This document shows, piece after piece, positions 2,481-34,756 of a stretch of 64,000 nucleotides of DNA (positions within the stretch are counted from its first letter, which is position 1; every line of letters begins with the position of its first letter). A model generated the notes under the pieces. It had not been told where the DNA came from and did no database searches. It worked only from the letters and a program-made list of their open reading frames with translations. The stretch spans positions 2,051-66,050 of the forward strand of contig ML986725.1 of the NCBI GenBank assembly GCA_010094045.1, in the 5' to 3' direction. Position numbers and translations under genes: made by a program. The DNA comes from Lojkania enalia (taxonomy: Eukaryota; Ascomycota; Dothideomycetes; Pleosporales).

Positions 2481-3889
2481 AGTAGATTAGAAAACTAAAT
2501 TATAGGTCTAAAATTACTCCTCTATAAAATTTAGAGGGTTTAATAGTAGGCTATTAGATATCTTCCTAATTCTCTTCTCCTCTACCCTTCTTTTTCTTTC
2601 TTCCCTCTAGACTCCCCTTAAACCTCTTCTACCTTATCTTTAACTGTCTGAGAGTACTATAATATTAGCTTAAAGGCTAGATATTAGAGCCTTTAAGGCT
2701 AAAACCCGATAGAGTAATTTAGTACTCTAGTAGAATAAAGCTACTTAGATACTAGCCTTAAAAAGACTAGCTTTCTAACTCTTTACAACCTAGACTATAA
2801 ACGCTAAACTATAAGTAGACTCTAAAATAGCTTTAAAGGCTACCTTTTTATCCTCCTTATCCCCTATATATTAGGCTGCTACCTATAGTTTAAGATAGCC
2901 CTAGAGGACTAGAAACTTCTTATTATAGTAGGAGGACAACTATAAGTATATTAGTAGTAAGTACTCTACTAATATTAGATGCGATTTATACGGGGTTATA
3001 CTTTTTATTTTACGAGGTATAATACTTATATTTTTTTAATCTTAAGAACCGAAAGATAAATATTATATACTGCCTGCAGGCGAACGCGTATATAATTTAA
3101 AGGTAGATAATCTAAAAGGCTTTTAAAAAGGCTCTAGAAGGTAGGCGGAGTAGTATATTAATTAATTTTTTTTCTATAAGGTATTAGTAATACTTTAATA
3201 ATTAATAGTTCTAGAGATACGTATTAATATATATAGAGTAGAAGTTGTTATTTAGTTAAGAAAGCTTAGTTAACAGCAATCTAGTAATATACTAAGGCTA
3301 GTAAACGCTTATTACTTTACGCGATAAAATTGCAATATTAATAAACTATTATAATAGTAGTTACCAGCTAATATATAGGTTAATTATACTTACTATAAAA
3401 ACCTTACTTAATATTATATTAATATATAAATACATCTCTATAGATAATTATATATATTAGTTTTTACTAATAAATACTTCTTTAAAAAAATTTCTTTATA
3501 CTAGAATCTATCTATAATAGTCCCAATTCCCTCCCGAACTAGTATAGATAGGGACTATTAGCTTATAAGAAGGGGGGTAGTATAATAATACGAAGAAATC
3601 GTTCTACGAAAAGCTTTATATATAACCTTATCCTAAAGCTTTTTACTTATTTTATTCTACCCCTAGCTCCGCCCCTTTTCCTATCCGTATATAGTTATAT
3701 ACTCCCTTATAAGTAGCTTAATAGTTCTTCTATATCCTTTTATATAAGGCTTATAGGTGTTAATAGAATTTCTAGGTCCCTAAACCCCTACGTACTCCTA
3801 TATATCTCTAAGTAGATTCGTATTATATTTAAACCTATTATCTTATCTATACTATTATATTAACTACTTTATTATTATAAAGTATTATA
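2481..3889. other. AT-rich stretch, probably LTR or transposon remnants
   Basis: No protein family is recognisable in any frame. The stretch lies between the chromodomain end of the plus-strand gypsy element and the RNase H end of the minus-strand gypsy element. It may hold LTRs or untranslated element sequence; no matching pair of direct repeats was identified by eye. The less AT-rich patch at 3,655-3,690 has no identifiable product. Confidence 0.4.
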
Positions 3890-4470
3890 AGTTCTTATAA
3901 TTACTTAATACTTCTATAAGAAATACTATACTTTCTAATTTAGGCTTCTATTATTTAAAATATTAGATAATTACAAGTAGCTTCTTATTATATATTTTAT
4001 AGATGCTTTTAGTAGAGTTTATATACTTAGAAAAGTAGGTAATAGGTCTTAGTTTACTATTAGCACCTCTCTAGAATAGTATACTAGCTATTATAAAATT
4101 AGATATATTAGTTTCTACTACTATTAGTAATTTAGGGTTAAAGTATTAGAAAATTAATATAGAGATAAAGATATCCTTTAAATAGTTAAAAGAATATTAA
4201 CAGCTATTATTCTAGTTAAATCGAGTATTCTTCTTAGTTAAGGCTACTAAGGGAGAGACTTTTTATAAGAAGTTGCTAATAAATTATTAGTAAAAGTTTA
4301 TAAAGCCTATAAAAGTTTAAATATCTTTTATATTCTTAAAGTATTCTTAGTTAATAATTATTTCTACCTTTTTTAAGTCTATATAAATCCCTTCTATAAT
4401 AATTATATACCCTAAATAGGTTACTTCTAACTAGTAGAACTTATACTTATCTATATTAAGTTATAGACTA
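3890..4470 (-). mobile_element. Ty3/gypsy element 2, RT (3' part) and RNase H segment
   Basis: Read on the minus strand, this gives the second half of a Ty3/gypsy reverse transcriptase (NIDKYKFY, then LEVTYLGYIIIIEG and KKVEII) followed by RNase H (LIVVETNISNF, then LRPITYFSK). It is full of RIP-type stops. It is the continuation of the segment at 11,652-14,600: removing the Fot1 element at 4,471-6,319 and the copia element at 6,365-11,651 brings the pieces into one frame. Confidence 0.8.
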
Positions 4471-6319
4471 ATATATTCTACTATTAAAGCGGCCAAACCA
4501 TCGAAGCGGCTACTTTTTCTTAGTATTACAAATACTACGTACGAACTATAATAAATCTACAATACGACCTTCTATTAATTTAATAAGAAGGTAGAATTGA
4601 GCTTACCTTACAGGCGTATAAATTAGGCTAGTTTAAGAGCGTACAACACGCTAATATAGCTTTTAATATATAATATTAACAACTCTCTACTCGACTTTAT
4701 AGAATCGCGTTTCGCCCTTATATATAACTAAATCGCTAGAAGCTTATAGTAACCGAAGAATAAACAATCATATAATATATTCTTAACCTTAATTCACGAA
4801 GATTTACGCCCCAGCTATATAAGATAGTAGATATAGTAGATAAACTATTAAGCGTACGTAGTAGAATACCTATAGGAAAGAATTAGCCTAAAGGATTTAT
4901 AGCGTGTATAGATAAGTTTAAAATAGTCTTTAATTAAATAAAGGATTGCTAAAGAATAAAATAAGAGAATCTAGAGGTTATTAACATATAGTTTAAGCTC
5001 GTACGGGATACAATTGCGAAATATAGTATATATAATAATAATATCTATAACTTTAATAAGATAGGCTTTTAGATAGGTATTATTAGTATTATAAAGGTTA
5101 TTACAGGTTTAGAATATCGTATAAGGCCTACTCTTATACAGCTAGGCGATCGCGAGTAGGTTATAGTTATCTAAAGTATCTATGCTGCTGTATATATAAC
5201 TCTACTATTTATTATCTATAAAGAACGCGTTTATATCTCTATATAGTATAAAGAAGTAGGTATACTATATAATTGGAAAATTTTAGTCTCTAAGAACGGC
5301 TAGATAAATAATACATTTAGTCTTAAGTAGCTAAAGTACTTTAATAAGTATATAAAGATACGTTAGGTAGAATTATATAGGCTACTTATTTTAGACAGCT
5401 ATAAAAGCTACCTTAACCAGAAATTTAAAGATTACTACCTTATACGAAAGATTCTAATACTTTATATACCTTCTTATTTATTGTATATACTTTAGCCTCT
5501 TAATATAGTTTACTTCTTACTATTAAAGCTAAAGTACTCGTAGCGTGTATAAGACTTAGTACGCTAATACGTCTACTATATTAATAAAGAAGGCTTTCTT
5601 CTAGCCTTTAAGGACGCGTTTTTTAACATATTTATATACGAGAACTATTAAAAGGCCTTTAAAGTAATAGGAATTATTCCTCTAAACGTATAGGTTGTAT
5701 TAGATTACCTTAATATATAACTACATATCCTACCAGAACTACTTTTATAAGAAGACTCCTAGTAGTTTAAAACTCTAAGTAATATATATAAATTTGGGTT
5801 ACAATTAATACTTATATAAAAGTCCTTTATACAATTACTAAAAGAGGTATAAGAAGGATTTTCACAGCTTATAAAAGGTGCTAAGTTAATGCTATATTAG
5901 AATACGCTTCTTTAAGCTCGCAACTTCAAGCTTAAAAGGTAATTAGAAGAAGTAACTAAGCGTAAAACGCGTAAAAGAAAGTATATTTAGTATAGTAGTA
6001 TAGTATTATATAACGAGGGATCTTTACACATAGCTGCTAAAGTATCTATAAGCTCTCAGCCCTTTAAGAAGACTTGTAGTACTAATACTTAAGAAAGAGC
6101 TTAACTAGCTTAACGCTACTATAGTAACTGTAGTAAGACTAGATATAACACTTATACGTGCTAAAAGGATAGTAGAGAAAATTCTAAATTAGATAAAAGT
6201 ATATTATATATAGAATCTCTTATTAGTATTAAGTAAATTAACTTTTTATATATAGTATTCGTTGTACTAAGAAAAAGTAGCTACTTTAATAGTTTAGCCG
6301 CTTTAATGGTAGAATATAT
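4471..6319 (+). mobile_element. Fot1/pogo-type DNA transposon, complete but RIP-dead
   Basis: A 1,849-bp element flanked by TA duplications (4,469-4,470 and 6,320-6,321), with terminal inverted repeats of about 43 bp (4,471-4,513 and 6,277-6,319) that differ almost only by transitions. The plus strand encodes a pogo/Fot1 DDE transposase: IYNFNKIGF (first catalytic Asp region, about 5,040), TGLEYRIRPTLIQ, YRLLILDSYKSY (second Asp), then LPLNI-like and FKDAFF blocks, and a zinc-knuckle-like tail YYSNCSKTRYNTYTC at about 6,118-6,162. Size and ends match Fot1/Pot2 elements. It sits inside the minus-strand gypsy element. Many stops make it inactive. Confidence 0.88.
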
Positions 6320-6364
6320 TATTTACTTTTAAGGCTTTAAGAACTAGCTAAATATACTACTTAT
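6320..6364 (-). mobile_element. Ty3/gypsy element 2, 43-bp RT bridge between two insertions
   Basis: This short sliver between the Fot1 element and the left copia LTR encodes on the minus strand LVLKALKVN, the part of gypsy reverse transcriptase expected between SKNLKNYK (ending at 11,652) and LNIDKYKFY (starting below 4,470). It includes one copy of each target-site duplication (TA at 6,320-6,321 and CTTAT at 6,360-6,364). Confidence 0.8.
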
Positions 6365-6489
6365 TATTAGAGCTGGTTAGCTCTAATAAAGGTTGGAAAA
6401 CTGCGTCTATTAACTAGAAATGCGAGATATGCTATATATATATCCCTAGACCTGCTAAGGGGCTAACTATAAATAGCTTAGCTGTAATA
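6365..6489 (-). repeat. Copia LTR (3' LTR relative to coding strand)
   Basis: This 125-bp direct repeat of 11,527-11,651 differs at 11 positions by my alignment, all transitions. It lies downstream of the copia RNase H end, so it is the 3' LTR of the minus-strand element. Confidence 0.92.
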
Positions 6490-9400
6490 TACCCCCCCCA
6501 GCTACAGTAAATAGCAAAGCTGCCTTCTAGTTAACTAGTCTAAATACCTCTATAAGACTAAGCTGTTTTAAAAAGGTAAAGTGCTTCTACTTAGGTAGTA
6601 CCTTTATAAGACCGTCTGCTAGTATCTAGTTCGTCGGCTTCCAGCTAACCTATAACCTTTCTGCTTCAACTTCTTATCGAATCTACATCTAATAAGTATC
6701 TATATAATGTAGCCTAGTCTATAGTCTATCTACTACTTTAGTAGTAATACCTACTATCTGCTGATTATTATAAAATAGCGTAGGGACTATCTTTATACTA
6801 AACCCTACGTAATCGAAGACCCTAGTCTACTATTATAGCTCGCTGCCTGCTACGGATAGAGCTAGTAGCTCAGCCTTAGTCGTCGACTTAGTAACCGAGC
6901 GCTATATTATTGCTTTCTAGTTGATAGATAGGCTATAGAGCTTAAATAGGTAGCCCTACGAGCTGCGATACGTCTCTTAATTATCTGCAAATGCTGCGTC
7001 TAATACTCTATAGAATAGTAGCTTATACTTATTACTAAGGTAGATTGCATTTTTCTAATCTAGTCTAAATATTTATAAGCCTAGCCCTCTCGTACTAATT
7101 ATATATCTCTAGACGTACTCTACTACTTAAATATAACTCTATCCTAGATTCTTAAAATAGATTACTAGAGTTAAGTAAGCTCTTAAGATATCTAAGCGCG
7201 TGTAGACTGCTAGATATCTTAAGGATCCAACTAGCTGCTAATAATATTTAGTTCTCTAATAGTTTAGCTTCTCTATACTTAATACTAGATAGTTATCGAC
7301 TAGAAGTACTATAGGATAGCTTCTCTACCCCTACTTCTATAGTCTATACTTAGCTGCGACCTTATTAATAAACGAGTCTTAACTAAGTTAGATTCTACCT
7401 ATATCCTAGTCTCGGACTATTCTAATTCTTAGAAACTACCGGAGCTATCTAAGTAAGCGTAGCTTATACTGCAATTTTAAGCCTGCTTTAAATTACTAAT
7501 ATATAGTAAGATAGTTTAGGTAAATTAGGACGACTATATCGTTAACGTAGAAGAATACTATCAGGCTCTTACTTCTAAATAGATATAGGACCTTCTAGAT
7601 TAGCTATAGTTCTAGCTTAAGCAGCGAGCTTTTAAGGTGCTTATACTAGAGTAGAGGAGTATCTCTTAGGCTATAAAGAGCTTTTCTTATCTCTAGTAGC
7701 TTACCTAGTTTCTATATAAATCCTTCTAGCGTATAAATATATATTAGTCTATCTAGTAGTATATTTAAGAAAGCGTTGGTAATATTATATTAATAGACGT
7801 ATAGTCTAAAAGCTGCTGCTAGAGCGACTAGAAATTAGAATACTTATACTACTAGAGTAGCTATATATATATCTCCCCAGTCCTACTATAGGTCTTCTCT
7901 AACAACTAGCCTAGCTTTAAACTTATATAGATATCTATTCTTATTAAATTTGTATATAAATACCTATATTAGTAGTAGAAGCTTAATCTCTAGCTGTATA
8001 CTAGCTCTAGTCTCTATCGTACAAACTAGACAGCCCTTACTATAGTAGCTCTAAAGCTCTACTGCTGCTGCTTTCTTAAATTCGATTCTAAATAGATACC
8101 TCTTAAACTACTTCTATTACTTTAGTAGAGGTAGTAGCTAATCTCTATATAGACTAATCCTGGGCTAATCAGCTAGTATATTACTACTCGTTTTCTACTA
8201 TAACACTTCTATAAACGTTATATAGTATATATAGGGTATTCTACAAGTTCTAGTCTCTATAATATTTCTAGTATTAAGCTAACTACTAATTTCGTCGCGT
8301 CTGTTTATATTATTTAATTATTGGTCTAGAGCCTCTACTTCTAGCTTAATTTAATACCAGCCTTTAAGAAGGCTAGTTATTACCTCTAAATACTCGTCGC
8401 GATCGTCTTAACTATATAGTTCTAGGGTGTCTTCTAGCGTTATAATACTACTAACTGCTGGATACTCTACTCTAGCCAGCTTATTTAATTGTTACTAACC
8501 TAGCTCCTACTTAAACTGCTACTTAATCTACTACTTAAGCTTATTATCTAACGTCTTTTTACGCGATTAAAGAGTTAATTAATCTAGTATCTGTTTAAGC
8601 TTTATATTATTTAGCTTACAGCTCTCCTTAATATTAAGTACTACGGCTGCTAGACGCAGTATCTACTTATCTAGAAAGATAAGATTTTTATACGATTCTG
8701 CAGGTAGTAGAATAATATTTTTAGTCCTAATAACTCTATCTAGCTCTGGTATCTAGATGCGATAAATATTTGTAGAGTTATATTCTATAAGGCGTCCGAT
8801 TAGTATATAAGATTATAACTTCTCTCTCTAGTATAGGTAATAATTTAGGATATATGCTTTAGCTCCTAGCACGCTGAGATAAGCTACTAACGGTCTAGTT
8901 CCGCGTACTACCTTATATAGGGTATACTAGTCTAGAGCTTCGATCAGTATGTAATTAAGGAGATAGACTGCTAAAAGTAGGTACTTGTTTAATACCTCTA
9001 TTAGTAGCTCTGCGTCTATCCTTATAGCTCTTTCCTATACGACTAGTAACTGCTCTACTCTTTCTATTAGACTATTCTACTCCTCAGTATACTCTACTCG
9101 TAGTTCTACTAAGATTCTTAGGTCTTTAAAGATATTAAGTATCTTAGAATATCCGCGTTTACTATTAAGCCTAACAGCTTTAACCTACGTATTAAACTAA
9201 GCTTTAAACTTAACTAGTAATCTCTATACTATATATTATAGCGTTATTATATTCTTATTTAGTAGGTAGCAGGCCTTATACTACCTACTATACTAGTAGA
9301 CTATATAGAACATCTAGAGGTCTCTATTATAGCAGCACTCTAACCGATCGCGTATTTAGACTAAATCTATCCCTAGTCTCTCGAATAGTTCCTAGGCTAG

Positions 9401-11526
9401 TTCCTAAGAAGCTTTCCTACTTACTATTTTATAGAGCTTAGACTAGATATAAATAGCGTATTCTGTCTACTTTAGAGCTTAATTTCTCTACTACTACTGC
9501 TACTGCTGCACCCCCTACTACTACTCAATTAATTTAAGCCCGTTAATATAAGTAGATAGATAAGTAACTACCTTCTAGCTAGTATAGCTGAATACCCTAT
9601 AAGCTTATATAGGTGTAAGTTCTAGCTACTTGCGAGCTGTATAGGAAGGCCTTAGTCTATACTATACTATATATACTAATAGAGATAGTCGTACGCTATC
9701 CTCTATATCTATTAGCTAATATCTAGACGTACGCCTGAGATGGTATATAATATTTAACGGATCTATCTAATATAGATAGTCTCGTCCTAAGTTAAAATAG
9801 ATCCCTACTATACTATAGTATAAGAGACTAACTACGCTCGTAAATATCTCTAGGATATATACTATATATAAGAGCAGGATAGTCTTAATTCTAGCAGGCG
9901 TCTATACCTACAGCTAGACTTCTCTCTATTCTTAAATTAGCAGCAGCTATCCCCCTATATATATATAGTCGTCTGGTCTAGGCTACTATATTATTCTCTA
10001 GCTATAAGACTTACTGTTAGTAATATAGGTATTTAAGCTAGGGTCTATAATCTATCTATTAAGCAGTAATAGCTAATGCTAATACTACTTAGCCTATACA
10101 ACTCTAAGCTATAGAGCTAAAGCTGCTATAGATCTTACTAATCAACTTAGGTTTAGAGCTGCTATTATAGCTAGTTCTAATAGTTAACGCCTGTTGTTCT
10201 ATCTTTTTATTATACTTAGTACTAGTATTAAGACTATTATAAAGCCTGTAGAACCTACTAACCCTACTAATCCTACTACTAGTTGCTTCTTAGTATTATA
10301 GAGTACCTTTAACCTAAAAGATCTTAATATCCTGAGCTTCTAGAATTTCTACTTAATATCTTAATCTAGCTGCTAGCCTAATAGGTGTAGTACTAAGTTA
10401 ATATATAAATACTATTTAAATTTATAACTATTTCTATAGAGGTAGACTATCTATTTTAATTGCTAAAGTTTCTAGCTACTTTTAGTCTAATACGACTGCT
10501 GTAGTTACTATAGTATAATACTAAGTATCGTAAACGTCTCTAGCTCTAATATAACTAGTTTAGTACGATGATAGTATAACGTATACTAGACTACTAGGTT
10601 TAAGATACTTATATATAGCTTATTGTCTACTTTAGACTTAATAAGCAGTAATAGCTTATTTACTACCCAGCTATCGTCCAAGTTCTTAACTGCGAGAATA
10701 AAGTCCTACTAAGCTTAATTCTCCTATACTTCTAGTATATTTACTAGACTTATAACGCGCGTCGTTTTAAGCTAATCCTTAAACTAGGTATCTAGGTTCC
10801 CCTTTCTTAGTCGTATCTTAAGCGTCTAGTATCGAGCCTGTAGCTATATACTGTACTTAGCTTTACTCGGGTAGAGATGCTTCTTAAAAGTCTATAGTTA
10901 ATTATACGTAGTCTTACAGTCTGCAATTAGATAGATATATTGAGCTACTATTATCCTCGATATCTCCTGCGTAAATTCCCTAAGAGTCTTCTCTTTCTAC
11001 AGCTACCGCGCCTCGCTGCGGCTGTACGTCCTATACTAGGCTTTATATCTTACCAATTCTTAATCAGTTAGATCTATAATATCTACTTCAGCATCTACTA
11101 CCTTAGTATTACTATCTATCCTATGGAAATCTCCAAACTATTTCTCAATCAGCTTCTCAGCATCTAGTCGAAGGACTAGCTCCTTACTAAGGTCTAGGTC
11201 TACGTATTTCTAGAGCTAGTTCTAGTCCGCGCTATCCTTCTACAGAAATAGCTACTACGTCTAGTACTCTAGCTTATTAAGAATAACCGTAGCCTTAGTA
11301 ATAAGTAGGTCTAATTCTATTATCTTTTTAATATACTATATCGCGTTAATCTGTTAAGGTCTCTGCTACGACTAGTTCTAAGCTCTCTAGCTTCCTAGCT
11401 AGCCTAGCGACGTTGAGGTAACTAAGGTCTTAATAAACGAGATATAATTAACTAAACCTATATTAATCAGCTCTAGTCTATCTATATAGAATATAGCAGT
11501 AGTTAAAGGGCTCCCGGGCTTATAAC

Positions 11527-11651
11527 TGTCAGAGCTAGCTAGTTCTAATAAGGGTTGGAAAACTGCGTCTATTAACTAGAAATGCGAGATATACTACATA
11601 TATATCCCTAGACCTGCTAAGGGGCTAACTGTAAATAGCTTAGCCGTAACA
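11527..11651 (-). repeat. Copia LTR (5' LTR relative to coding strand)
   Basis: This is the 125-bp partner of 6,365-6,489. It begins TGTCAGAGC and ends CCGTAACA on the plus strand, keeping the TG/CA ends that the other copy has lost by G-to-A and C-to-T changes. It is followed directly by the CTTAT target duplication. Confidence 0.92.
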
Positions 11652-14600
11652 CTTATAATTCTTTAGATTCTTACTAAATATTAGATTATTATTAATATAA
11701 GTAGTATAGAATATATTAAAATATAATCTTAATATATTATTTATAAAGTATTAAAATATACTTAGAATATTAACTAGATTAAAAAATATTACTAGGTATT
11801 TAAATAGCCTATAATATATATAAAAGATAGTCTTCTATTTATCTCTTTTAATAATTCTTAGCTTATTAAATATAGTAATAATATTAAGTTTAATATAGTA
11901 TTTAGCCTTACTAAATCGGGTTAATATTTCTTAAATTAGTAGAATTAAGTATTAGTTCTTAATAGTAATAGTATTTAAGGCTCTATAGTTTATATAAAAT
12001 TAGAGACTACTTCTAGATTTCTTTATAAAGATTATAGGTATAGCTATTAATAATAAACTTACTCTAATAAATCCCTTAAATAAGTTCTTATTAAGATACT
12101 TCTTTAGTACCTTTAACTTATTCTAGAATATCTTATAGAGTAGATTAAAACTAGTTTACTTACTATTCTCTAGTTTAATTTTATAATTATATAATTATTA
12201 TTTAAATAGCTTATTTATATTTTTATATAAGAAGATAGATAATAGATTATAGTATTCTTTAGGTACTTTAATAATAGAGTTAGTATATACCTTTAGAGTT
12301 AGAGCCTTATTAATATTAGCTATTAATATAGTAAAGATTTTATAGTTAGATTACTAGAAGAGTTAAACTAGTAGTATAGCGCCTATATAGTATATATTTA
12401 ACTATAATATAAACTTTAGATATTTAGACTTAGATAGATTCTTTTAACTATAATCTTTATCTAAAATTAGATTAGTTTTAGTTTTAAATTCTTTTAACTA
12501 GTATAGTATTTTAGATAGCTAATAATTATATTAGATATAACTTAATAGGTAGAGTTTTAAATAGTACTATCTAAGCTTTAAGCTATATAGGGGTTATAAA
12601 TTAGTTACTTTAGAATCTCCTTTTATATTAAGTTCGGGTAGTTTATAGTCTTTAATAACTATTTAAATAGCCTATTAGTAGATAATAGTATTAGTAACTT
12701 ATAAGTATTAAGTTAGATATTAGTTAGTAGTAAAGACTAGCTATTTATTCTCGTAGTCTAGGTTTATATAATACTTATATATCTATAACTATTCTAGAAT
12801 TAACTAGTATTTTTCTAATATAATTATATAAAAATATACTATCTCTAAATAGTTTAAGTATTAAAAGGTTAAGATAACTAAGTAGAAGATAATTCTTCTA
12901 TAAAAAACTTCTCTATTAAAGCTAGTTAAATATAAGTTATATAAGAGTTATATTTTTTTAGAGTTTTAGGGTATATATAAAGTCTCTATAAATATAGCTA
13001 TAACTAGTAGTTTTAGTATTAATAAGAATATTAATATTTTACTAAACTAAGTCTTAATAGATTAAAAAAGGAGTTAAAATCTAATAGTTTTATAACTATT
13101 TCTATAGAAGCTAGTTCTATAAATATATAGAGATTTAGTATAAATATAATTCTAAGAAGTAACTTACTTCTAGAATAGATCTTTTAGTAATATTCTAGTT
13201 AGTAAAACTAGTTATATTTAAAAGTAAGAGTAATAGCTTTATCTATAAGATAATAAGCGTATTAAAAATTAGTTAGAGGATTAGTTAGAAGATTAAGAAT
13301 AGGACTTATAAGATATAATAGAGCTCTAAGACCTTTAATAAATTAATAGTAGAAGGGCGCTATATTCTAGTAAAATATATCTCTTACTATTATACTTATA
13401 ATAGCGTTTTTTATAGCAGCGTCTTTCTTATTTATTAGAGCTTATAAGTATATAGCTAAAAGTTTTAAGTTCTATAATATTTAAGTCCTTCTAATAAATA
13501 GTATAATACTTCGGTTATTTATAATAATTACTAGATAGATAATATAGGTTAATATAGTTATTTAGGGTACTAGGTATTATAATACCTATTATAGTATAGT
13601 AGAGCTTATTAGAGAGAGAATATTAGAGATATATAATTTATCTAGTCTTATTTAGTTTAGTATCTATAATTAGACGTTAGAATTTAGTAAAGTAAGTAGA
13701 GAACCTACTTTAGCCTTACTTTAAAGTCTCTAGCTTACTCTATACTATAGTCTTCTTATTCTAGTTACTATAGGTAGATTTTAAGAAGGCAACTAAGCTA
13801 TTTATAGAGTTAATACTCTTATCTATTAATAGGTTAACTAATATTACTAGATCTTATTTTAGATAGGAATAGATATATAAAAGGCGGGTATATTTAGTTA
13901 AGTATTAGTTAATATTTCCTTCTAGTTTATAGTAGAGCTTTCTAATAAAGTATAAAAGCTCTAAACGTTTACTAGAAAATATTAAAAAGTTAAGTAAGTA
14001 GTTAAAATAGAAATATAGGTTATATATAATTTTAGGTAGATTAGAAGTTAATATAAGTATCGATTTAGAAGCTAGGGTTATAGGTTAAATTAGGCTAAAG
14101 GCGGGTAATAGTTCTATTACTATTAATATACTAGTAGTTAGTAGAAGAGTAGCTATTTAGCAGCTATTAAATTCTCTTTATATTACTTTAAGATCTAATT
14201 TATAGTAGTTCTTCTAGGTTACTAGAGCCTCTACTAGTATCTTATTCTTCTACTATAAAGAGTTTAATTTACTTTAGATCTTTTTAAGTATATTAATAAG
14301 TACGTTCTTATCTATAATATATAGTAGTAGATAATATAATATAATATTATAGATACTTATATATAGTTAGTTAATTATACTTTAGGTAGTTAACTCTATT
14401 ACTATATACTATATATAAATAGTAAAATATTATATAAAGAATAGAAATATCTATATTATATAAGTTTTTATAGAAGCTAGGTCTATACTACTATATAGGC
14501 TAGCTAGGTTGGTAAAACCTTCCTCTATTATAGTTAAGATAAGTCGGTTATATTCTAGCTAGTAGCTAATAGCTATTACTAGTAGCTAGTTTAAGTATTA
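11652..14600 (-). mobile_element. Ty3/gypsy element 2, upstream part to mid reverse transcriptase
   Basis: The minus strand encodes the N-terminal half of a Ty3/gypsy reverse transcriptase between about 12,200 and 11,652: NLFKGFIRVSL, then IFIKKSRSSL, YRALNTITIKN, KLNIITIFNKLRI, LVIFFNLVNILSIF and YINNNLIFSKNLKNYK. It stops exactly at the copia insertion site. Sequence further right should be the protease/gag part but is too eroded to read; its right limit is approximate. Confidence 0.75.
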
Positions 14601-14699
14601 TAGTAAGAATAGTATAGGTGTAGAGGTGTTACAGTATTACTATAATAAATAGCTTATCTACTATAATTAATAATTCTCTTAATTTACTTACTAAAGATA

Positions 14700-15093
14700 T
14701 TATATAAATAGTTTATTTATATATACTATTTTAATATTAGGTTAGTTAGTTTTAGAAAGTAAATAAGGTTCTATAGAAGTAAGATAGTCTTACTAAAGCT
14801 AAAGCTGCTGAGATAACTATTTAAAAGGAGGTAGATAAGTAGTTAAAGGATGAAGTATATATAGATAGAAAGTATAGAAGAGTAGGTATATTATACTAAA
14901 AACGCTATAGTTGCTATAGTAAGTCTAGATATAATACTAGAACTTATATAGTAGTAGATAAATAGTATATCTATCCCCTATTAAATTATTATAATAATAT
15001 CTATAGATATTATTATAATATATACCTCTAAATATAGAGATAACTAATTAAGTAGATAACTTATTTAGGTAGATAACTTACTTATAAAATATA
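14700..15093 (+). mobile_element. Fot1-like transposase C-terminal fragment with right terminal repeat
   Basis: The plus strand encodes a lysine/glutamate-rich tail followed by a zinc-knuckle-like motif RYSCYSKSRYNTRTY at about 14,903-14,948, equivalent to the RHCSRCSEPGHNAR motif at about 25,885 on the minus strand. A 44-bp terminal repeat at 15,050-15,093 matches 16,709-16,752 in the same orientation; the differences are transitions. No transposase core is attached, so this is an end fragment. Confidence 0.65.
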
Positions 15094-15299
15094 TTATATT
15101 ATAATAGAACTTTATTTACTTCTTAAAACTATTATATATTAAATAGTATTAATTACTAAGATAAATATTAATATATTAAAGGAGGGTAAGTAGTCTATTA
15201 AACTAGAGGCTAGTAATAGTAAAACTATATAGGCCTAAAAATAGACTAACTATAATAGGATAGTAGAAATATATAATAGAAGCTAACTAATCTAATACT
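15094..15299 (+). repeat. Dispersed repeat family, RIP-mutated copy
   Basis: About 15,170-15,290 aligns with 42,960-43,085 (plus), 47,850-47,960 (minus) and part of 48,805-48,930 (plus), sharing the core ACTATATAGGCCT and GGATAGTAGAAA. This copy carries C-to-T and G-to-A changes; the others are largely free of them. Confidence 0.6.
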
Positions 15300-16752
15300 A
15301 AAGTAGTATATATAAATAAACTATTAGTATAGTACCTTTAGTAAGTAGATTAAGTAACTTATTAATTATAGTAAGTAAGCTATTCTAATACCTAGTAATA
15401 TAATCTTAAATTAGTATTATTTAAGACTCTAGCTTAATAGTATTTATTAGTACTTCTAACTCCCAGCTATAACTAGCTACTACTAGTAGTAATAGTATAC
15501 GAAGCTTAATATTAAGCTTTAATAGCAGTATATTAAAATTATATAGTTTTAAGCTAGTACCTTAAAAGCTTATATATATATTAGCTTTAGTAATAGAGTA
15601 CTAATATACTATACTAAAGGTTAGTAAAAAGTTAAGCTTTATAATATGGTAGATACTAGCTTATATAAGCTTACCAATCTAGCGCCTATATACCTTCTTT
15701 AACGGCGAGAAACAGCCTTATCTAGGGGCTATAGTAGATGTAATAAATATGCTAGCATATATAATAGAATAATATCCTTCTTATTATAGAGCAGCTGAAA
15801 CTTAGTAGATCTATAACTCTTATAGCTATTAATAACTAGTAGACGATAAGCACCTACTATATACTATTCTATATACTAATTAAAACTCTCTAGCTATTTA
15901 ATCGCGGGTTTATTATTAGTCTATCTACTATCGTTCAGCGCAATTACTCCTCTAGGTGTTATATTATCGCCTTAATACTATATAGAGAGGTACTATTTAC
16001 TAGAAACAATAACGAATAGTAGGATAGTATTACTAGAAGTACTGATAGTCTAAATAACTATTATCTACTTACAACTACCTAGCTGCAGTAATTTTAGTCG
16101 AATAGCTAATAGCTCAGCGCTAGTAGCTATCTTATTAGTAGATGCGATACTTATCTAGAAGCCTCTATCGTCGAAATTATAGATATTATTATTAGTAATA
16201 CTATACTTTGTATTAGTATTCCGTACCAGGTCGAACCAGCTACTAATAACCTCAAGGTCCTTATAGAGAGCTCGCTAATAGTGGCATTTTTAACAAAGGC
16301 ATATTTTAAACTTAGGGATACGATTGATAAAGTTTAATAAATAGTTTTTGCCGATCTAGTAAGTAGAGCAATCTCTAAGTAGTTAGCTATATCTCGTACA
16401 CTATCGAGCATAGGAGTATATCAACGAGATAATAGGCCTAGTATATGCCGAATAATAGTCGATTCCTCTAGCTTTATAAGCTACTTTGAATTGGGCTCGT
16501 GATCGCGTCGTGAAGGTCTACTAGTACGTCGGCCTCTAAGCGTTGTTCGGGGGATGCTATAGGTAACTATAGCGCTTCTTACGCTCTGAATTTGATCTTG
16601 ATTGATAGCTGAGATTGTCAGCGATATCTGACCTTATTAATATATCGATTGAGGCTGAGGTGGTCCCCGCATCGTTTTGTAAGTAGGTATAGTATGACTT
16701 CTTAGCAAAAGTGGGCGACTCGCTTGGGTGGACGACCCGCTTGTGAAATATG
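15300..16752 (-). mobile_element. Fot1-like DNA transposon, minus strand, RIP-dead
   Basis: Read from the right-hand terminal repeat (16,709-16,752, beginning AAGTGGGCGACTCGC) leftwards, the minus strand gives a Fot1-type transposase: TRSRAQFK and helix-turn-helix remnants near 16,500, the DDIYNFDE region near 16,160, a GAYRLLVINSYKSY block near 15,850 and LYNKKDII near 15,790. Its 16,080-16,530 portion is a diverged copy of 26,180-26,600. The left end is not clearly marked. Confidence 0.7.
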
Positions 16753-25688: not shown

Positions 25689-26640
25689 TCGGTAGACTCT
25701 ATACAAATGGCTACATTAGAATAGGTAACGTAGCTTATAAGCGAGTCGCCCATTTTATCAGTCATCTCTATATTTAGAGGCATATATCGTAGCAACTCCA
25801 GCAGGTATTAGGATAGTATTTCGATAGAAGATAGGCTATTTATCCGCTACTATGGAAGATCTAGCGTTATGCCCAGGCTCGCTGCAGCGACTACAGTGCC
25901 TCTAGTGTGACGTGCGGACCTTTCTGCGCTTCCTACCTTCGCGCACTTCACTTGTAGCTGCTCAATCACCTCCTTTTAAGCAGCTATCTTAGCGGCTTCA
26001 GCCTTATTAAGACTACCTTACTTCTATAGAACCTTTTTTGATTGCTTTTTGCGCTGCGATAAAGCCTTATTTGCTTCCTAAAGATGACTAACCTGACGCT
26101 GAAGCAGCGCATATAAATAAACCATCGGCGTTGATAGCCTAAATAACTATGACCCACTTGCGATCACCTGATAACAGTTATTTTAGTCGACTATCTGATA
26201 TCTCAGCATCAGCAACTACCTTACTAGTAGATGCGATACTTATCTAGAAGCCCGTCTCGTCGAAATTATAGATATCGTCGTCCGAAATGTTATACTTTGC
26301 TTTAGTGCTGCGTTCTAGGTCGAGCCATCTACTGATAACCTCAAGGTCCATACAGAGAGCTCGCTGGTAGTATTTTTAACAAAAGCATGCTTTGAGCTTA
26401 GGGATGCGATTAATGAAGTTTGCTGGTCAGTTTTTGCTGGCCTGACCAGCAGAGCGAGCTCTTAAAAGTTGGCTATATCTCATATACCATCCTGTATAGG
26501 ACGATACCGACAAGATGATAGGTCTAGCATATGCTGAATAATAGTTGATTCCTCTAGCTTTGTAAGCTTCTTTGAATTGGGCTCGCAATCGCGTCGTGAA
26601 GTCTACTGACGCGTAGCCCAGATATCCTCGCTTATTCACC
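25689..26640 (-). mobile_element. Fot1-like transposon with internal deletion
   Basis: Read on the minus strand from about 26,600: RAQFKEAYKARGIN (N-terminal DNA-binding region), INRIPKLKACF, DDDIYNFDETGF (first catalytic Asp region, near 26,265), STSKVVADAEIS and RKWVIVI. Then INADGLFICAAS near 26,120 is followed almost at once by the C-terminal coil QKAIKKGS and the knuckle RHCSRCSEPGHNAR (about 25,870-25,912). The segment holding the second catalytic Asp and beyond is missing. At 25,739-25,755 a piece of the terminal repeat (AAGCGAGTCGCCCAT) is seen. It is much less RIP-mutated than its relative at 15.3-16.75 kb. It is non-autonomous. Confidence 0.72.
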
Positions 26641-26827
26641 AAAGAATGCAGCCAAGCCTCGCGAGTCGGAGCCAATCAGTTGTTCTTGGCCAAAGTCAAT
26701 ATCCGCTGATGGAATAATGCGGAATTCCCTTTCTATCCGTACCAGATCTATAGCTAGACAACTTTTGTCAATCCGATTGATCTCCCACCGATTGCTACTC
26801 CTCAGCCGTCGATCCTTCTATTGCACA

Positions 26828-28853
26828 ATGTCTGTTCCACCTCTGGATATCCTTTCAGCTGAGGCCGCAGTCCTCGATAACGTGACGAGCCTTATCGCAT
26901 TGCTCGGCTACATCGTCAGCAAGGTGCGAGAGGTTCGCGGATTCAGGAAAGATTGCCATGAACTCACGAATACTTGTATCGCACTTACTCTCACCTACCT
27001 GGACAATAAGAAGGCGCTTGAAGTCACGAAACTGAAGGGTGAATTCGACAACTGCTTGAGGGAGGTCTACAGCCTTGTGATGCAATGTCGAGAATGGAAT
27101 ATCGCACATATCACGTTCGATGTTACTATAAAGCACAAATTCACGTCGATGAAGACAAAGCTGGACAATATTCGCAAAGCATTCGAATTAGAGATTATCG
27201 TGAGTCTCTCCATCCAGCAAGCAATGATTGGCAATGCACGCATAGGACTAATTTATTGCTAATCATACCTTAGATGACCCTTAAAGGAGCCTCGTCTGAG
27301 GCTGCTAGCGCTCTTCGCTCACTGACGGCCGAAATGAATGAGATTCGAGATGCCCAAGAAGAGGATGAAAAAGACAGAAAAGTTATGCTAGAAAAACTTC
27401 GTCAGCTTCAGGATGACGTATCTGAGTCGCGGCGCAACATCTTGTCTCTGAAACCGCTCCCATATAGCTTTCTCAATATCCTATCAATATCCGACCCAGG
27501 CATATGTGTGTTGAAGGGGTCAGCCGACGGGAAGCCTGTAACGGGAACCTTCAAAGGCTCAAAAGTCTCTTTCCATGAGGTTATAGATAAGAAAGGGGTA
27601 TCAGACGACCTCCCTCGAGTGGTAAAGCTGTATCGGGATATGGCGGAGGTAGCGCAAGTCCAGACACTGTACGGTATTTCTGAGAAGGATGGGTCCCTTT
27701 ACGCTGTCATGGAAGACATGGCGCAGCATAGCACCTTCGCAGATGCTTTGGAGACAGGCTTCATTGCTAAGCTAAGCCAGCTACAGAAACTCCAGATCGG
27801 GCACGAAATAGCAGCCACTCTCTCAGCTCTTCATAGGGCAGAAATTCTCGTCAAAATCATGTCCGATGTGACTACTCATCTCGAAACCCTACCCGACGGA
27901 TCGATTAGGGCAAAGCTTTCGGGATTGCAAAGTGCTCGAAGGGTTAGTGTTCGACTTTGGATGTAATTTGGTATTGTTTTGGCATCCAGCGAGGACTAAC
28001 TAGTATCAGATATGGGAGACAACTACTCGCGACATACAGGATCCAAGATTCGAAGCTCCGGAAACGGAGAAGGCAGGATCGCGGTCTCCCATGTCGGATG
28101 TTTGGGCGTATGTATTCAGCCACCCGTCTTGTAGCTCAAACACTCACGATAAGTCATAGGCTAGGTATTGTACTGCATATGCTTTTCCTCGCGGAGTTTC
28201 CTTTTGGTAAGCAGGCAGGTCATGCAAATCCAGATGATAATTCAGTGCGGCGCGAGATCAAACATCTTCTTGGGTCAAACAAAGGTCCTTTCACTAGTTA
28301 CCCTTCGCTTATACCAAAAGAGATCCAGTTGGCGCGAGAATGTCTTCAATCAGACCCTTTTCTTCGACCACCGGCTTCCTGGGTCGCCCAGAAAATGTTT
28401 GAGCTTTTGATCAGTGTTGCAGCCAAGGCTAATCCTGATCTACCGTTGGCTGTTCCACTACTAAAAGAGCACATCGATATGGACAAACCGGCCATGGATG
28501 AACTGGTCAAGCGGATTCATTTGGCAGCACGAGAAGCAAAAATCAATAAGAAGGGTATTCAGAAATTTGCGCAAGCAGAAATAGGCAAGCTAAAACGGGC
28601 GGCCGAAGAAAGCAATCCGGTATACGCCTACACTGTAGGCTTGGCTTATCTTCGTGACCTTGCTGAGCTTGGAATTGATGATCAGTCGTCGACTGAACTT
28701 ATCCCAGACAAAATCCGACGCGCAAAGCTCGCTCTTCCGTATCTTGATATAGCCCAACAACAAGGGCACGTCGGTGCAATCAAAGAATTGGTTCTCGCTC
28801 ATAAGTATCTAGCTGAACACTATCATGCGCTATTGAAGATAGATTATGAATAA
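26828..28853 (+). CDS. MLKL-like protein: helical N-domain, coiled-coil brace, pseudokinase, Sel1-like tail
   Basis: Four exons (26,828-27,199; 27,274-27,942; 28,010-28,107; 28,160-28,853) with clean GT-AG introns of 74, 67 and 52 nt give 610 aa. Residues 1-124 look like a four-helix bundle (LDILSAEAAVLDNVTSLIAL). Residues 139-180 are a charged coiled coil like the MLKL brace. A kinase fold follows: VVKLY (K242), LHRAEILVKIMSDV at the place of the catalytic loop with no HRD, LSGLQ (339-343) in place of DFG, an APE motif (363-365), SDVWALGIVLHMLF, and DPFLRP in the C-lobe. Human MLKL likewise has GFE for DFG and lacks HRD. Residues 531-600 resemble Sel1 repeats (YTVGLAYLRDLAELG). By analogy it may be a membrane-acting cell-death effector switched by a kinase; this is inference. 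It is convergent with the kinase gene, 44 bp away. The start at ATG 26,828 (CACAATGTC) is preferred over an in-frame ATG at 26,717. Confidence 0.8.
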
Positions 28854-28897
28854 AATGAAACTCGAGATCACTCTATGAGCTTGATTCCTTCGTTCTA

Positions 28898-31800
28898 TCA
28901 CAGCTCAGAATTTGCTTTTCTCTTTCGGCTCGACAATTTCAACCAACCTGACGTAAGGTTCAATTCCGAGTCCGTTTCCAGCCGTTTTCTCACTTGTGGG
29001 AGCTCATAACTCCCATCATACCACTCAGTCTCCCTACCGTAGGCAGTGGCAGCTATCCCTGATGGGCCATCCATGACCTCATCCATCACCACTACTAAAG
29101 ATGCTGCATCAAATCTCCCGGAAGGATTGGGGTCCAAACAGCGCTCTAGAACTCTCATGAGGCCTGCGAGATAAAGAATTTTTCCATCATTATCACAAAG
29201 CAGGGGGAAAATCTTCCCATTGCTGATGATTTTCACTGCTAGAAGCGCCCATGAAAAAATGTCGTCGGCTGTTGAGGAATCTCGCGGCTGATTAGCAATT
29301 TCTGGCGACAGGAAGTCAGCGTAGGCAGGGGAGTAGGTGCCAATGCTTGCGGAACAGGCGAGCGGTTGCAAGGCCATATTCCTGACTGTGGTTGTGATAT
29401 CTTTCCCTTCACCTAAATCAGACAGGAGACAGTCGAACTCGATTTCGTCTTTGCCTGCTTGGCGAAGGGATGTCACTAGAACATTCTTTGGATGGATGTC
29501 CCTATTTAAATCATGTTTTTCAGTACAACGAACTTCAATAATTACTTTCATCGCGAGCCATTATTTGGAAACACACATACCTGTGAATAATACCCTTCTT
29601 ATGAATCGTCATCAGGCCATGTGCAAGTCCACTCAAGGCCCCGCAAATAACTAACCAGTTCTCTTCTGGCTCTCCTGGCTTTAGTCTCTTTTCCAGGAAG
29701 TCCAGTATGTCACCCTGTTCTGCAAAGTCAAACACAAGGGCGAAGGTCTGTTTTGTAGTACTTGGAGATTCCTTGGTTGAGTTTAGGTCGATAATATGAC
29801 CCGTTTTATTGAGGGAGACTTTGCAGAATCCGTAGAACGGGACGCAACCACTGGAATCTCCGGCAAGTGCTGAGTACACAGTGGCCAGCTATAATCTGTC
29901 AACTAGCAAAATCAAGAACGTATGGCGAACTGCAGCATACTTCGACAAAAAATTTCGCCTGGTCATCAAAACTCTTAGCCACCATTGCCACTTTAAGCGC
30001 AACTGTCCCCCTTCCTTCCTCGGTGTGATCATACATCTTGATTGGCTTCCTCGCCCAGCTCGCTTTATACACTGCCCCGAAACTGCCTTGTCCGATAAAC
30101 TCTAAGTTTGCGAGATCGATTTCGCAGGAATCAATCAAGACCAGGTAGTCGCTATAGGAGGGATTATAATGCTTGCCGAGAATTTCTCGAATGGTAGAAT
30201 GCTGCGTAGAGAGCGTGTTCCGGTGTCGGTGCTTGAGATCGAAGAAGTCGAAGGCAGCCCAGAAACCCGATCGATTCTCTAGCTGTCGCATCTTTAGACC
30301 AGGGAGAGTTTCGAGAAGATAGAAAGTCTGGTTGCTAGGGTTGAAGGTGAATGCGCAATCATTCTTGTAAAATAGCTCAGTTACTCTCTGGCCCCTTGAT
30401 CCCCATCGGATAGTTGTGGAAGAGAGTGACTCACCCATAATTCCAGAAAATATCGAAACTGCTTCACAATTCCTGTCTCTTCTAGCTTCTGTCGCCGAAA
30501 CACTACCCTGTTTCCAATTTTCAAACCGGGGTATCGGTAGTCAGAGTCGACATGGGAAGGGAATAAGTCGTCTGTAAGATACAAAGTGTGGTTGACGCTA
30601 TCCGCCGAAACGCTACATAGAGTATTGTCTAATGTTTTAGGATCGAGGCCCAACCCGCTCTCTAAGTCGACGAAGCTCTTCGGGTCGATTTCTTCGAGCG
30701 TCTCCCACGGGTAGAATAAGAAGAATCTCGCTGGATCGATGATTGCACTTTCATGGGCTCTCCGACGGAACTCAAGTTCAAGCTTGTGTATAGTAAGTTA
30801 ATTTTCGGGCTACAGGAAGTATACTAGGGCACTCACGAACTCCTGAGAGTCCTCTTTGAAGAATAGACTAGCTATCTGACTCTGGTATACTCAGCTTCGC
30901 TCCATATCAGCCCAAATAGCATGGACCGGGGGACTAGAGGCTTACAGGGCGGTGAGACAACATGTCGCTTAATGGCTGCTTCGCGATAATTTCCCGGCCG
31001 CATTTATCATCCGGTACCTCTAATTTCCAGTATTCAGTAACCTCCTCAGATGCAATGAGCTGATCAATCTCCAAACTATGAGGCTCATTCTTCTTCGACA
31101 CTACTAGCATGCGGCAAAATGACCAAACATCCCAAAGGTCCTCAGCTTCCATAATTTTGGTTGCCGTGATTTTGGCCCAATCCTCAGTCCGCTCTTTATC
31201 CCGTCTCTCTTTCGCGTCCTCAGCTTCTGCATCAACCGCAATTTCATCATTACCTTCATCTTTACCGCCTACATTCCCGCTATCATCTATACCATCCCCT
31301 ATACCCTCGAACAAACCTGTAGGCGGGAACTCTGGCGTCTCCTCAATCATCCGCTCTACACAATCCCTCACCACGTTGTGATCCCCCAACTTCAACAGCT
31401 CTAGCACCTCCGTTTTAAACCCAGGCAACCCCTTCAACCTCTCAATGTCACTAATAACAAGTCTCCCCAACTCTTTCCAAATCCCTATATCCTCTTCATG
31501 CGGCACAACTGTTATCTCCTCCACTCTGATGCCATTTCGCTCGCCCAGCCGGGGATTGTCTCGCATCAGCTGCTCGGTACGATAATATCGTCTATCGTAG
31601 AGGTCATTTCTTCCCCTAATTCTCGTCCGTAACGTTGAGCGAAAGACATCTAGGGCGGCATGGAAATCTCCGCCGTGGCATTCGGTAACCCATTCGGGGT
31701 CTAGTTCGGTCAACGCCAAGCGCAGGACGTTGTCGGCCCAGGACCAGCGAAAGAAGATAATGGCGGCTGCGCGTTCGGCTAATGAGTCGCTTGTGGTGCC

Positions 31801-32025
31801 TATGGGCTTAGATTCAGCGCGAAGCTGGGCAAACGTGTTTGAAAGGAGAGTTCGCTCGAAAGGTTGGAGTCGAACACGGAGTGGAAGAGTGAATGAGGAA
31901 GACAATAAGGTTGAAGTTGAGGAAGGGAGGGTGGAGAGCGCAGTATGAAGACAGATGTGCCGAAGACGTGTTATACGTGGCCAGCTGCATCGCTCGCGAA
32001 TATGGAAGAGGTAGCGGTCGTCCAT
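28898..32025 (-). CDS. Large protein with C-terminal protein kinase domain and unknown N-terminal region
   Basis: Six exons join in frame: 32,025-30,946; 30,881-30,837; 30,782-30,435; 30,387-29,941; 29,888-29,581; 29,501-28,898 (943 aa). The joint after residue 360 uses GTAAGC...ACCAG and fuses what looks like a separate 363-aa frame to the kinase. Residues 1-360 (RWSWADNVLRLALTELDPEW, with an acidic stretch near 245-290) match nothing I recognise. The kinase domain starts near 588: IGQGSFGAVYKAS, VALK (K623), HRDIHPKN (D744, N749; the loop is split by the last intron), SDLGEG (D771, DLG instead of DFG), SPEI in place of APE, and CLDPNPSGRF. The catalytic residues are present, so it is probably active. 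No signal peptide or membrane helix is seen. Tail-to-tail with the MLKL-like gene; a kinase-effector relationship is inferred from this and the domain types. The 47-nt intron 30,434-30,388 is the least certain. Confidence 0.75.
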
Positions 32026-33700: not shown

Positions 33701-34687
33701 CTAGCGTTGCAGAGTCAACACAGCAGGTCGGTAAGGTAAAAGACCGTACTGGGAGGGATTCTTATTGGGATCACGTCCCTGGTAGAGCAACTGCAAATTG
33801 CATGGATCAACCGTCATTGTCTGGTCGGGATTGTCACGGAATAAATCTCCATGGCTGATATCGTTGGACCAAGTGGCGCCACTGTTGGCCTTGCCAGCGA
33901 AGGGGTTGCTCTCGCTCGCGGCTTGCGGTGTCCACGAGCCGGCCAAGTTGGTTGCCGTGAATGAGCGGAAGTAGCGGCCTCGTGCACCGATCGCCTCAAC
34001 GATCATGAGGTACTTATTCTGACCTTGGAGAGTATAGACCTGAACGGCCTCAAACAAGTTGTTGGTCGAGTCGCTCATGATCACGGTAGCTGCTGTACCG
34101 AAATTGCTCGGGAAGTTTCCAATGGGCATGCTAGCCCGATAAATCCTGCCATTGTCGCCCGCAAAGAATAGATACATGTTGCTGCTGTCGCCGATGAGCG
34201 TTTGGTCGATGGGACCAGTGCTAGAGCCGGAGATAGATCCGGAAAAGAGCGGCTGCACTGAAGACCATCCATTTACGTTAGTCGGGTCATTCGATGTGCG
34301 GTAAGAGAACGCGGTTGGACCCCATTGATAAGCCAGCACCCAAATGTTCTTTGGAGAGAAGTAAAAGAGTGTGGGTGCAACCGTGCTGAAACTCATTGCG
34401 TTCTGGCTTGCAGAGCCCATGTCCGACCAGTCCGTAAAAAGGCCAAAGTTCATGGAGCTCCAGCGCGATCCTGAGTCATGGTTGGTGGCATAAACAAGTT
34501 TGCTGCCATTATAATTGACGGTGGTGAAGTCCTTAAGGGAGACCCATCCTGACCTAGGGTCCGCTAAAGGGCCAGTCGAAGTCCAGCGGTACGTTGACGG
34601 AAGGTCGCATGTGCTCTGCGCTAGGCTAGCTACCGCAGATGCTAGGAACACGAGGTAGGTTGAAAACAGGCTGACGGTGGGAATCAT
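33701..34687 (-). CDS. GH62 alpha-L-arabinofuranosidase, secreted
   Basis: A single exon of 328 aa from ATG 34,687; an in-frame ATG at 34,717 would add [10 protein letters not shown] and spoil the signal peptide. The N-terminus ([20 protein letters not shown]) is a signal peptide with cleavage likely near SLAQ. The mature protein opens [19 protein letters not shown], the typical GH62 start. Family residues are visible: [13 protein letters not shown] (general base Asp region), [12 protein letters not shown] (supporting Asp) and [10 protein letters not shown] (general acid Glu). GH62 enzymes release arabinofuranosyl side chains from arabinoxylan outside the cell. No carbohydrate-binding module is attached and the length matches a catalytic domain alone. 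A TATA-like sequence lies about 70-85 nt upstream. It appears intact and sits with other cell-wall genes. Confidence 0.95.
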
Positions 34688-34756
34688 GATCCCTAGTATT
34701 CTCTTTTTGTATCGCAATGATAAGGAGGGTTTGATGAAGACAGTTAAGACGCAGTT

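What the first reader, a model, noticed from the sequence alone, without database searches (positions are those of the whole stretch)
26828..32025. Convergent MLKL-like pseudokinase and protein kinase genes: a candidate fungal RIPK-MLKL-type pair
Seen: the plus-strand gene encodes a helical N-domain, a charged coiled coil and a kinase fold with no HRD and SGLQ where DFG should be, but with retained VVK, APE and DP-x-x-RP motifs. The minus-strand neighbour, 44 bp away tail to tail, has a kinase domain with glycine loop, VALK, HRD-x-x-x-x-N and DLG. Established: MLKL is a four-helix bundle plus brace plus pseudokinase (GFE for DFG) activated by the kinase RIPK3; fungal HeLo/HELL proteins and plant MLKLs are cell-death relatives. 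Inference: the two genes form a kinase/executioner unit, with a Sel1-like tail as a novel addition.
Basis: partly seen in the sequence, partly recalled or inferred. Interest (0 to 1): 0.85.

Follow-up and report, generated by a model that had tools for sequence, protein, structure and literature searches.

The report
Fungal pseudokinase paired with a kinase
A fungus carries, tail to tail, a dead-kinase protein laid out in the same order as the animal cell-killing protein MLKL and a separate live-looking kinase, which may be a two-gene cell-death switch, although no killing or phosphorylation has been shown.

The parts
26828..28853 (+). pseudokinase gene, 610 aa; exons 26828-27199, 27274-27942, 28010-28107, 28160-28853; introns 74, 67 and 52 bp (GT..AG)
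   Evidence: one search had used a wrong third donor; product identical to P0001
26840..27193 (+). N-terminal helical domain, residues 5-122, four main helices (full model: 5-32, 37-59, 68-89, 99-129; exon-1 model: 6-33, 39-59, 67-89, 101-118); candidate MLKL/HeLo/CC-type four-helix bundle
   Evidence: (low pLDDT)
27274..27444 (+). two further predicted helices, residues 133-150 and 156-181 within 125-181; candidate brace
27469..28430 (+). pseudokinase domain, about residues 190-470 (interrupted by introns 27943-28009 and 28108-28159)
   Evidence: Pfam Pkinase E 3.1e-12, residues 237-457; the wider limits are my estimate; coordinates
27859..27867 (+). M320-S321-D322, aligned to HRD; S321 and D322 invariant in 6 of 6
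27922..27930 (+). G341-L342-Q343 at the DFG position; Asp absent in 6 of 6 family members
28019..28027 (+). T351-T352-T353 before APE; candidate activation-loop phosphosites; T353 kept in 5 of 5 rows that reach it, T352 is T in four and S in one
28569..28802 (+). two probable Sel1-like repeats, residues about 517-544 and 567-594
28854..28897 (.). 44 bp between the two genes' stop codons
28898..32025 (-). protein kinase gene, 935 aa; exons 32025-30946, 30881-30837, 30782-30435, 30363-29941, 29888-29581, 29501-28898
   Evidence: P0007
29111..30093 (-). kinase domain from GQGSFG (30093-30076) through VALK (30003-29992), HRDIHPKN (29585-29483, across an intron), SDLGEG (29422-29405), SPE (from 29308) to CLDPNPSGRF (29140-29111)
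30094..32025 (-). about 580-residue N-terminal region of the kinase; two pieces of it (360 and 219 aa) gave no Pfam match up to E 10

Best explanation
The plus gene encodes a membrane-targeting helical-bundle protein held in check by a catalytically dead kinase domain, working like MLKL, with a Sel1-like tail for docking. The adjacent active-looking kinase is its most likely regulator: on an unknown signal it would phosphorylate the pseudokinase loop (T352/T353), free the helical bundle, and cause membrane damage or cell death, most plausibly in self/non-self or parasite defence. Shown here: gene structures, loss of the DFG Asp, intact main kinase motifs, tail-to-tail order. Indicated: contig-level linkage in three species. 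Suggested only: the bundle's fold. Inferred: every step from kinase to membrane.
Confidence: 0.35

Rival explanations
1. The plus protein is a pseudokinase scaffold: helical N-domain and Sel1-like tail bind partners, and the dead kinase domain acts as a docking platform, with no membrane pore and no cell death. The neighbour is an independent kinase placed there by chance or by local clustering.
For: Probable Sel1-like tail; no HeLo, HELL or MLKL sequence model matches; each gene was found without the other; convergent close neighbours are common in fungal genomes (recalled).
Confidence: 0.35
2. The plus protein is a cell-death or signalling executor of the MLKL/HeLo/CC superfamily, but it is triggered by something else (an NLR, a ligand of the Sel1-like tail, or proteolysis), and the kinase is not its activator.
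For: Fold matches; the characterised fungal executioners HET-S and HELLP are switched by NLRs through amyloid motifs (PMC10197012 passages; PMC12881547 passages and section 18). Pseudokinase found without a detected kinase in 2 species.
Against: Indicated contig-level linkage with a kinase that keeps its main catalytic motifs; a conserved Thr in the loop before APE.
Confidence: 0.2
3. The kinase inhibits the pseudokinase protein, as an antidote in an incompatibility or selfish pair.
For: Patchy occurrence of both genes in the protein search; close relatives in different classes.
Against: Pseudokinase gene found without the kinase in 2 species, which an antidote model does not expect.
Confidence: 0.07

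Closest known systems
Animal MLKL with RIPK3
   Same: Order helical N-domain, linking helices, pseudokinase with Gly in place of the DFG Asp in 5 of 6 members (MLKL's GFE is recalled and in the finding); separate active-looking kinase as candidate activator; Thr in the activation loop.
   Different: No sequence match to MLKL_N; no visible glycine loop or sure ATP lysine; Sel1-like tail added; the kinase has about 580 residues of unknown N-terminal region, and no RIPK feature was recognised.
Fungal HELL/HeLo proteins, including HELL-kinase/pseudokinase fusions (PMC12881547, one sentence seen in a passage)
   Same: Helical N-terminal domain fused to a kinase-like domain in fungi.
   Different: Not recognised by the HELL model PF17111, which finds 18 other places in this genome; profile comparison not significant.
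MLKL-family (TCDB 1.A.105) homologues with Sel1 repeats in Glomeromycotina (PMC8778642, passages)
   Same: MLKL-like protein with Sel1 repeats in a fungus.
   Different: Different fungal group; no neighbouring kinase described in the passages seen; sequences not compared here.
Fungal two-gene death units: het-S/nwd2, gasdermin/protease (PMC10197012, passages)
   Same: Candidate executioner beside its candidate controller.
   Different: Controller here is a kinase, not an NLR or protease.

Membership tests
MLKL | N-terminal four-helix bundle of MLKL topology | tested here: inconclusive
MLKL | Sequence match to the MLKL_N family model (PF22215) | tested here: not met
   Not listed for any of 6 members; no match in the own genome up to E 10.
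MLKL | Pseudokinase domain lacking the DFG Asp | tested here: met
   G or Q at that place in 6 of 6; kinase domain by Pfam E 3.1e-12.
MLKL | ATP-binding lysine and glycine loop retained (recalled for MLKL) | tested here: inconclusive
   Pfam alignment starts at model position 45, after that region.
MLKL | Brace helices between bundle and pseudokinase | tested here: inconclusive
   Helices 133-150 and 156-181 predicted at pLDDT under 50.
MLKL | Activation by a RIPK3-type kinase and membrane permeabilisation | not testable with these tools
   Needs experiments.
HELL (PigL_N, PF17111) / HeLo | Sequence match to the family model | tested here: not met
   PF17111 finds 18 places in the genome at E 0.01, not this one; none listed for 6 members; hhalign P 0.051 and 0.033. 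HeLo (PF14479) was covered only through the Pfam scans.
RIPK | Active kinase domain motifs | tested here: met
   Loop glycines, Lys, HRD, N and DLG invariant in 4 of 4; the HRDxK Lys is His in 4 of 4.
RIPK | Kinase domain nearer to RIPK than to other kinases | tested here: not met
   PDB profile search (60 of 155 matches shown): GCN2 3.7e-9, STK33 2.3e-8, MAP4K4 5.5e-7 ahead of RIPK1 4.4e-6.
RIPK | RHIM or death domain | not tested
   No dedicated motif search; two N-terminal pieces gave no Pfam match up to E 10.
Sel1-like repeats | Sequence match to Sel1 repeats | tested here: inconclusive
   Profile of 4 tails: SEL1L 5b26 whole-sequence E 0.00097, best single stretch i-Evalue 2.5; 6 of 9 listed matches up to E 10 are Sel1 proteins. 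Pfam lists no Sel1 for 3 tails. Likely, not secure.
Conserved two-gene unit | The two genes are neighbours in other species | tested here: inconclusive

The most novel reading that the evidence does not exclude
A fungal necroptosis-like unit switched by its own dedicated kinase: an MLKL-type helical-bundle pseudokinase with a Sel1-like tail, paired with the kinase that unlocks it, independent of the NLR-amyloid route known in fungi. This would be the kinase-to-executioner logic of RIPK3-MLKL outside animals.
Probability: 0.22. Interest if true: 0.85.

Novelty: new variant of a known kind. Interest (0 to 1): 0.5.

Why it matters
The characterised fungal relatives of MLKL, such as HET-S and HELLP, are switched by NLRs through amyloid templating. 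A genetically linked kinase and MLKL-like pseudokinase would make it testable whether phosphorylation-triggered necroptosis arose before animals or was built again in fungi. It would also supply a small, movable two-gene system for yeast work.

Tried and rejected

PDB sequence search with the N-domain profile listed no MLKL, HET-S or CC-NLR up to E 10 (19 matches: 16 Rab, 2 IncA, 1 caveolae protein). DUF7792 was taken as a lead to a plant bundle domain (recalled) and then weakened: a genome-wide search put this locus at E 0.07 beside a match at 0.12 inside an open frame that reads by eye as a kinase-like protein, and reversed sequences gave nearly as good matches to other families.

Pseudokinase and kinase as duplicates of each other: profile comparison finds only a C-lobe match, P 0.0083. 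This is no sign of a special kinship. The Cudoniella pseudokinase lists RIPK1 in 11 of 13 PDB matches, but at E 0.007 or worse; not used.

Horizontal transfer to Trichoglossum: 81% identity across classes and a 100/99 branch grouping it with three Pleosporales (P0004 and P0006 trimmed, P0011 left out), but keeping the Pleosporales together is not rejected (p-AU 0.075). Contamination was not excluded. Not claimed.

Relatives in IMG/VR viral contigs and in GTDB prokaryote contigs: none confirmed. Neither collection is expected to hold fungi. No fungal genome other than the window's own could be searched, so gene-level synteny elsewhere remains untested.

In print: searches (20 of 194 listed; 15 of 15; 1 of 1; 7 of 7; 12 of 61); side searches. 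None of their listings shows, by title and start of abstract, a paper on a kinase gene beside an MLKL-like pseudokinase gene in fungi. Passages were read in four papers and one section in one; the rest were seen only as listings.

Full report
What is there. The window lies in a fungal genome held as G000 (58.1 Mb, 400 contigs). The plus gene splices from four exons into a 610-residue protein, 100% identical over its length to Lojkania enalia CC78DRAFT_548673. L. enalia is a pleosporalean ascomycete. The minus gene splices into 935 residues and agrees with the annotated kinase-like protein P0007 at 908 of 908 aligned positions; the annotation skips 27 residues that the other three relatives have. 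The stop codons are 44 bp apart. The contig here is 122,899 bases, against 127,954 listed for both annotated proteins, so G000 may be another version of the assembly. Whole-genome searches at E 0.001 with either protein find this locus; the only other match is one weak kinase-domain match for the kinase (E 1.3e-4).

The pseudokinase. Pfam finds a protein kinase domain at residues 237-457 (E 3.1e-12) starting at model position 45. At the DFG place the six family members (the window's own included) have GLQ, GLQ, GLR, GLR, QLG and GLS, none with Asp. The STK24 alignment puts GLQ on DFG, while the CERK1 alignment leaves a two-residue gap there; both put MSD on HRD. That Asp is invariant in 6 of 6. 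So the metal-binding Asp is lost while the catalytic-loop Asp may be kept. APE and DVW are kept in 5 of 5 rows that reach them, and DP-x-x-RP in four, with NP-x-x-RP in Cudoniella. TTT (VST in Cudoniella) before APE offers conserved hydroxyls. The tail gives SEL1L as its best PDB profile match (whole-sequence E 0.00097; single stretches weak), with stretches in register with Sel1 repeats.

The partner kinase. GQGSFG, VALK, HRDIHPKN, SDLG and SPE are present. The loop glycines, Lys, HRD, N and DLG are invariant in 4 of 4 members, and the HRDxK lysine is His in all four. Its nearest PDB profile matches are GCN2, STK33 and MAP4K4, with RIPK1 lower. Its first 580 residues or so are unlike any Pfam family in the two pieces tried.

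Are they a unit? Searches of 5.8 billion proteins (about 8,000 best candidates scored in each) gave the pseudokinase in five named species and one unnamed source, plus a second, shorter copy in Lindgomyces, and the kinase in four named species. Three species have both: Lojkania, Lindgomyces and Lentithecium. If unlinked, sharing a contig would be roughly a 1-6% event in each of Lindgomyces and Lentithecium, assuming genomes of 40-60 Mb (sizes not looked up). Trichoglossum and Cudoniella gave only the pseudokinase, Cosmosporella only the kinase; a split or short gene model would be missed by this search.

What is known. [quoted passage not shown] A 2022 paper reports MLKL-family homologues with Sel1 repeats in Glomeromycotina (PMC8778642, passages). 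Two-gene death units are established for HET-S/NWD2 and gasdermin/protease (PMC10197012, passages). The kinase next door is the part for which I found no precedent in the listings of searches.

Verdict. Real genes, a genuine conserved pseudokinase, a plausible but unproved MLKL-type N-domain, and indicated linkage with a kinase that deserves a test. New variant of a known kind; interest 0.5.

Noticed in passing
window 26050-26790, minus strand: Remnant that reads by eye like a pogo/Tc1-type transposase (ISDDDIYNFDETGF stretch), broken by stops, directly upstream of the pseudokinase gene. DDE_1 is very common in this genome (1137 first-look candidates, 150 scored; this place was not listed).
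   Followed up: partly
window 1-16000: AT-rich stretch (G+C 21-34% in 2-kb steps) against 42-51% for the rest of the window; looks like repeat-induced mutation, not tested.
   Followed up: no
P0002, Trichoglossum hirsutum: 81% identical pseudokinase in another fungal class; a possible transfer or contamination; the tree test is undecided (p-AU 0.075).
   Followed up: partly
P0011, Lindgomyces ingoldianus: Second, shorter pseudokinase copy (262 aa) on another contig; looks degraded by eye.
   Followed up: no
window 30363-30283, minus strand: The deposited kinase model P0007 appears to skip 27 residues (NDCAF...MRQ) that are open in the DNA and present in the other three relatives.
   Followed up: yes
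G000, 18 places (L011-L028): The genome holds at least 18 HELL (PigL_N) exon matches, 9 over the cut-off.
   Followed up: partly
window 33701-34717, minus strand: Open frame with a complete GH62 arabinofuranosidase domain next to the pair (Pfam E 7.2e-154).
   Followed up: no
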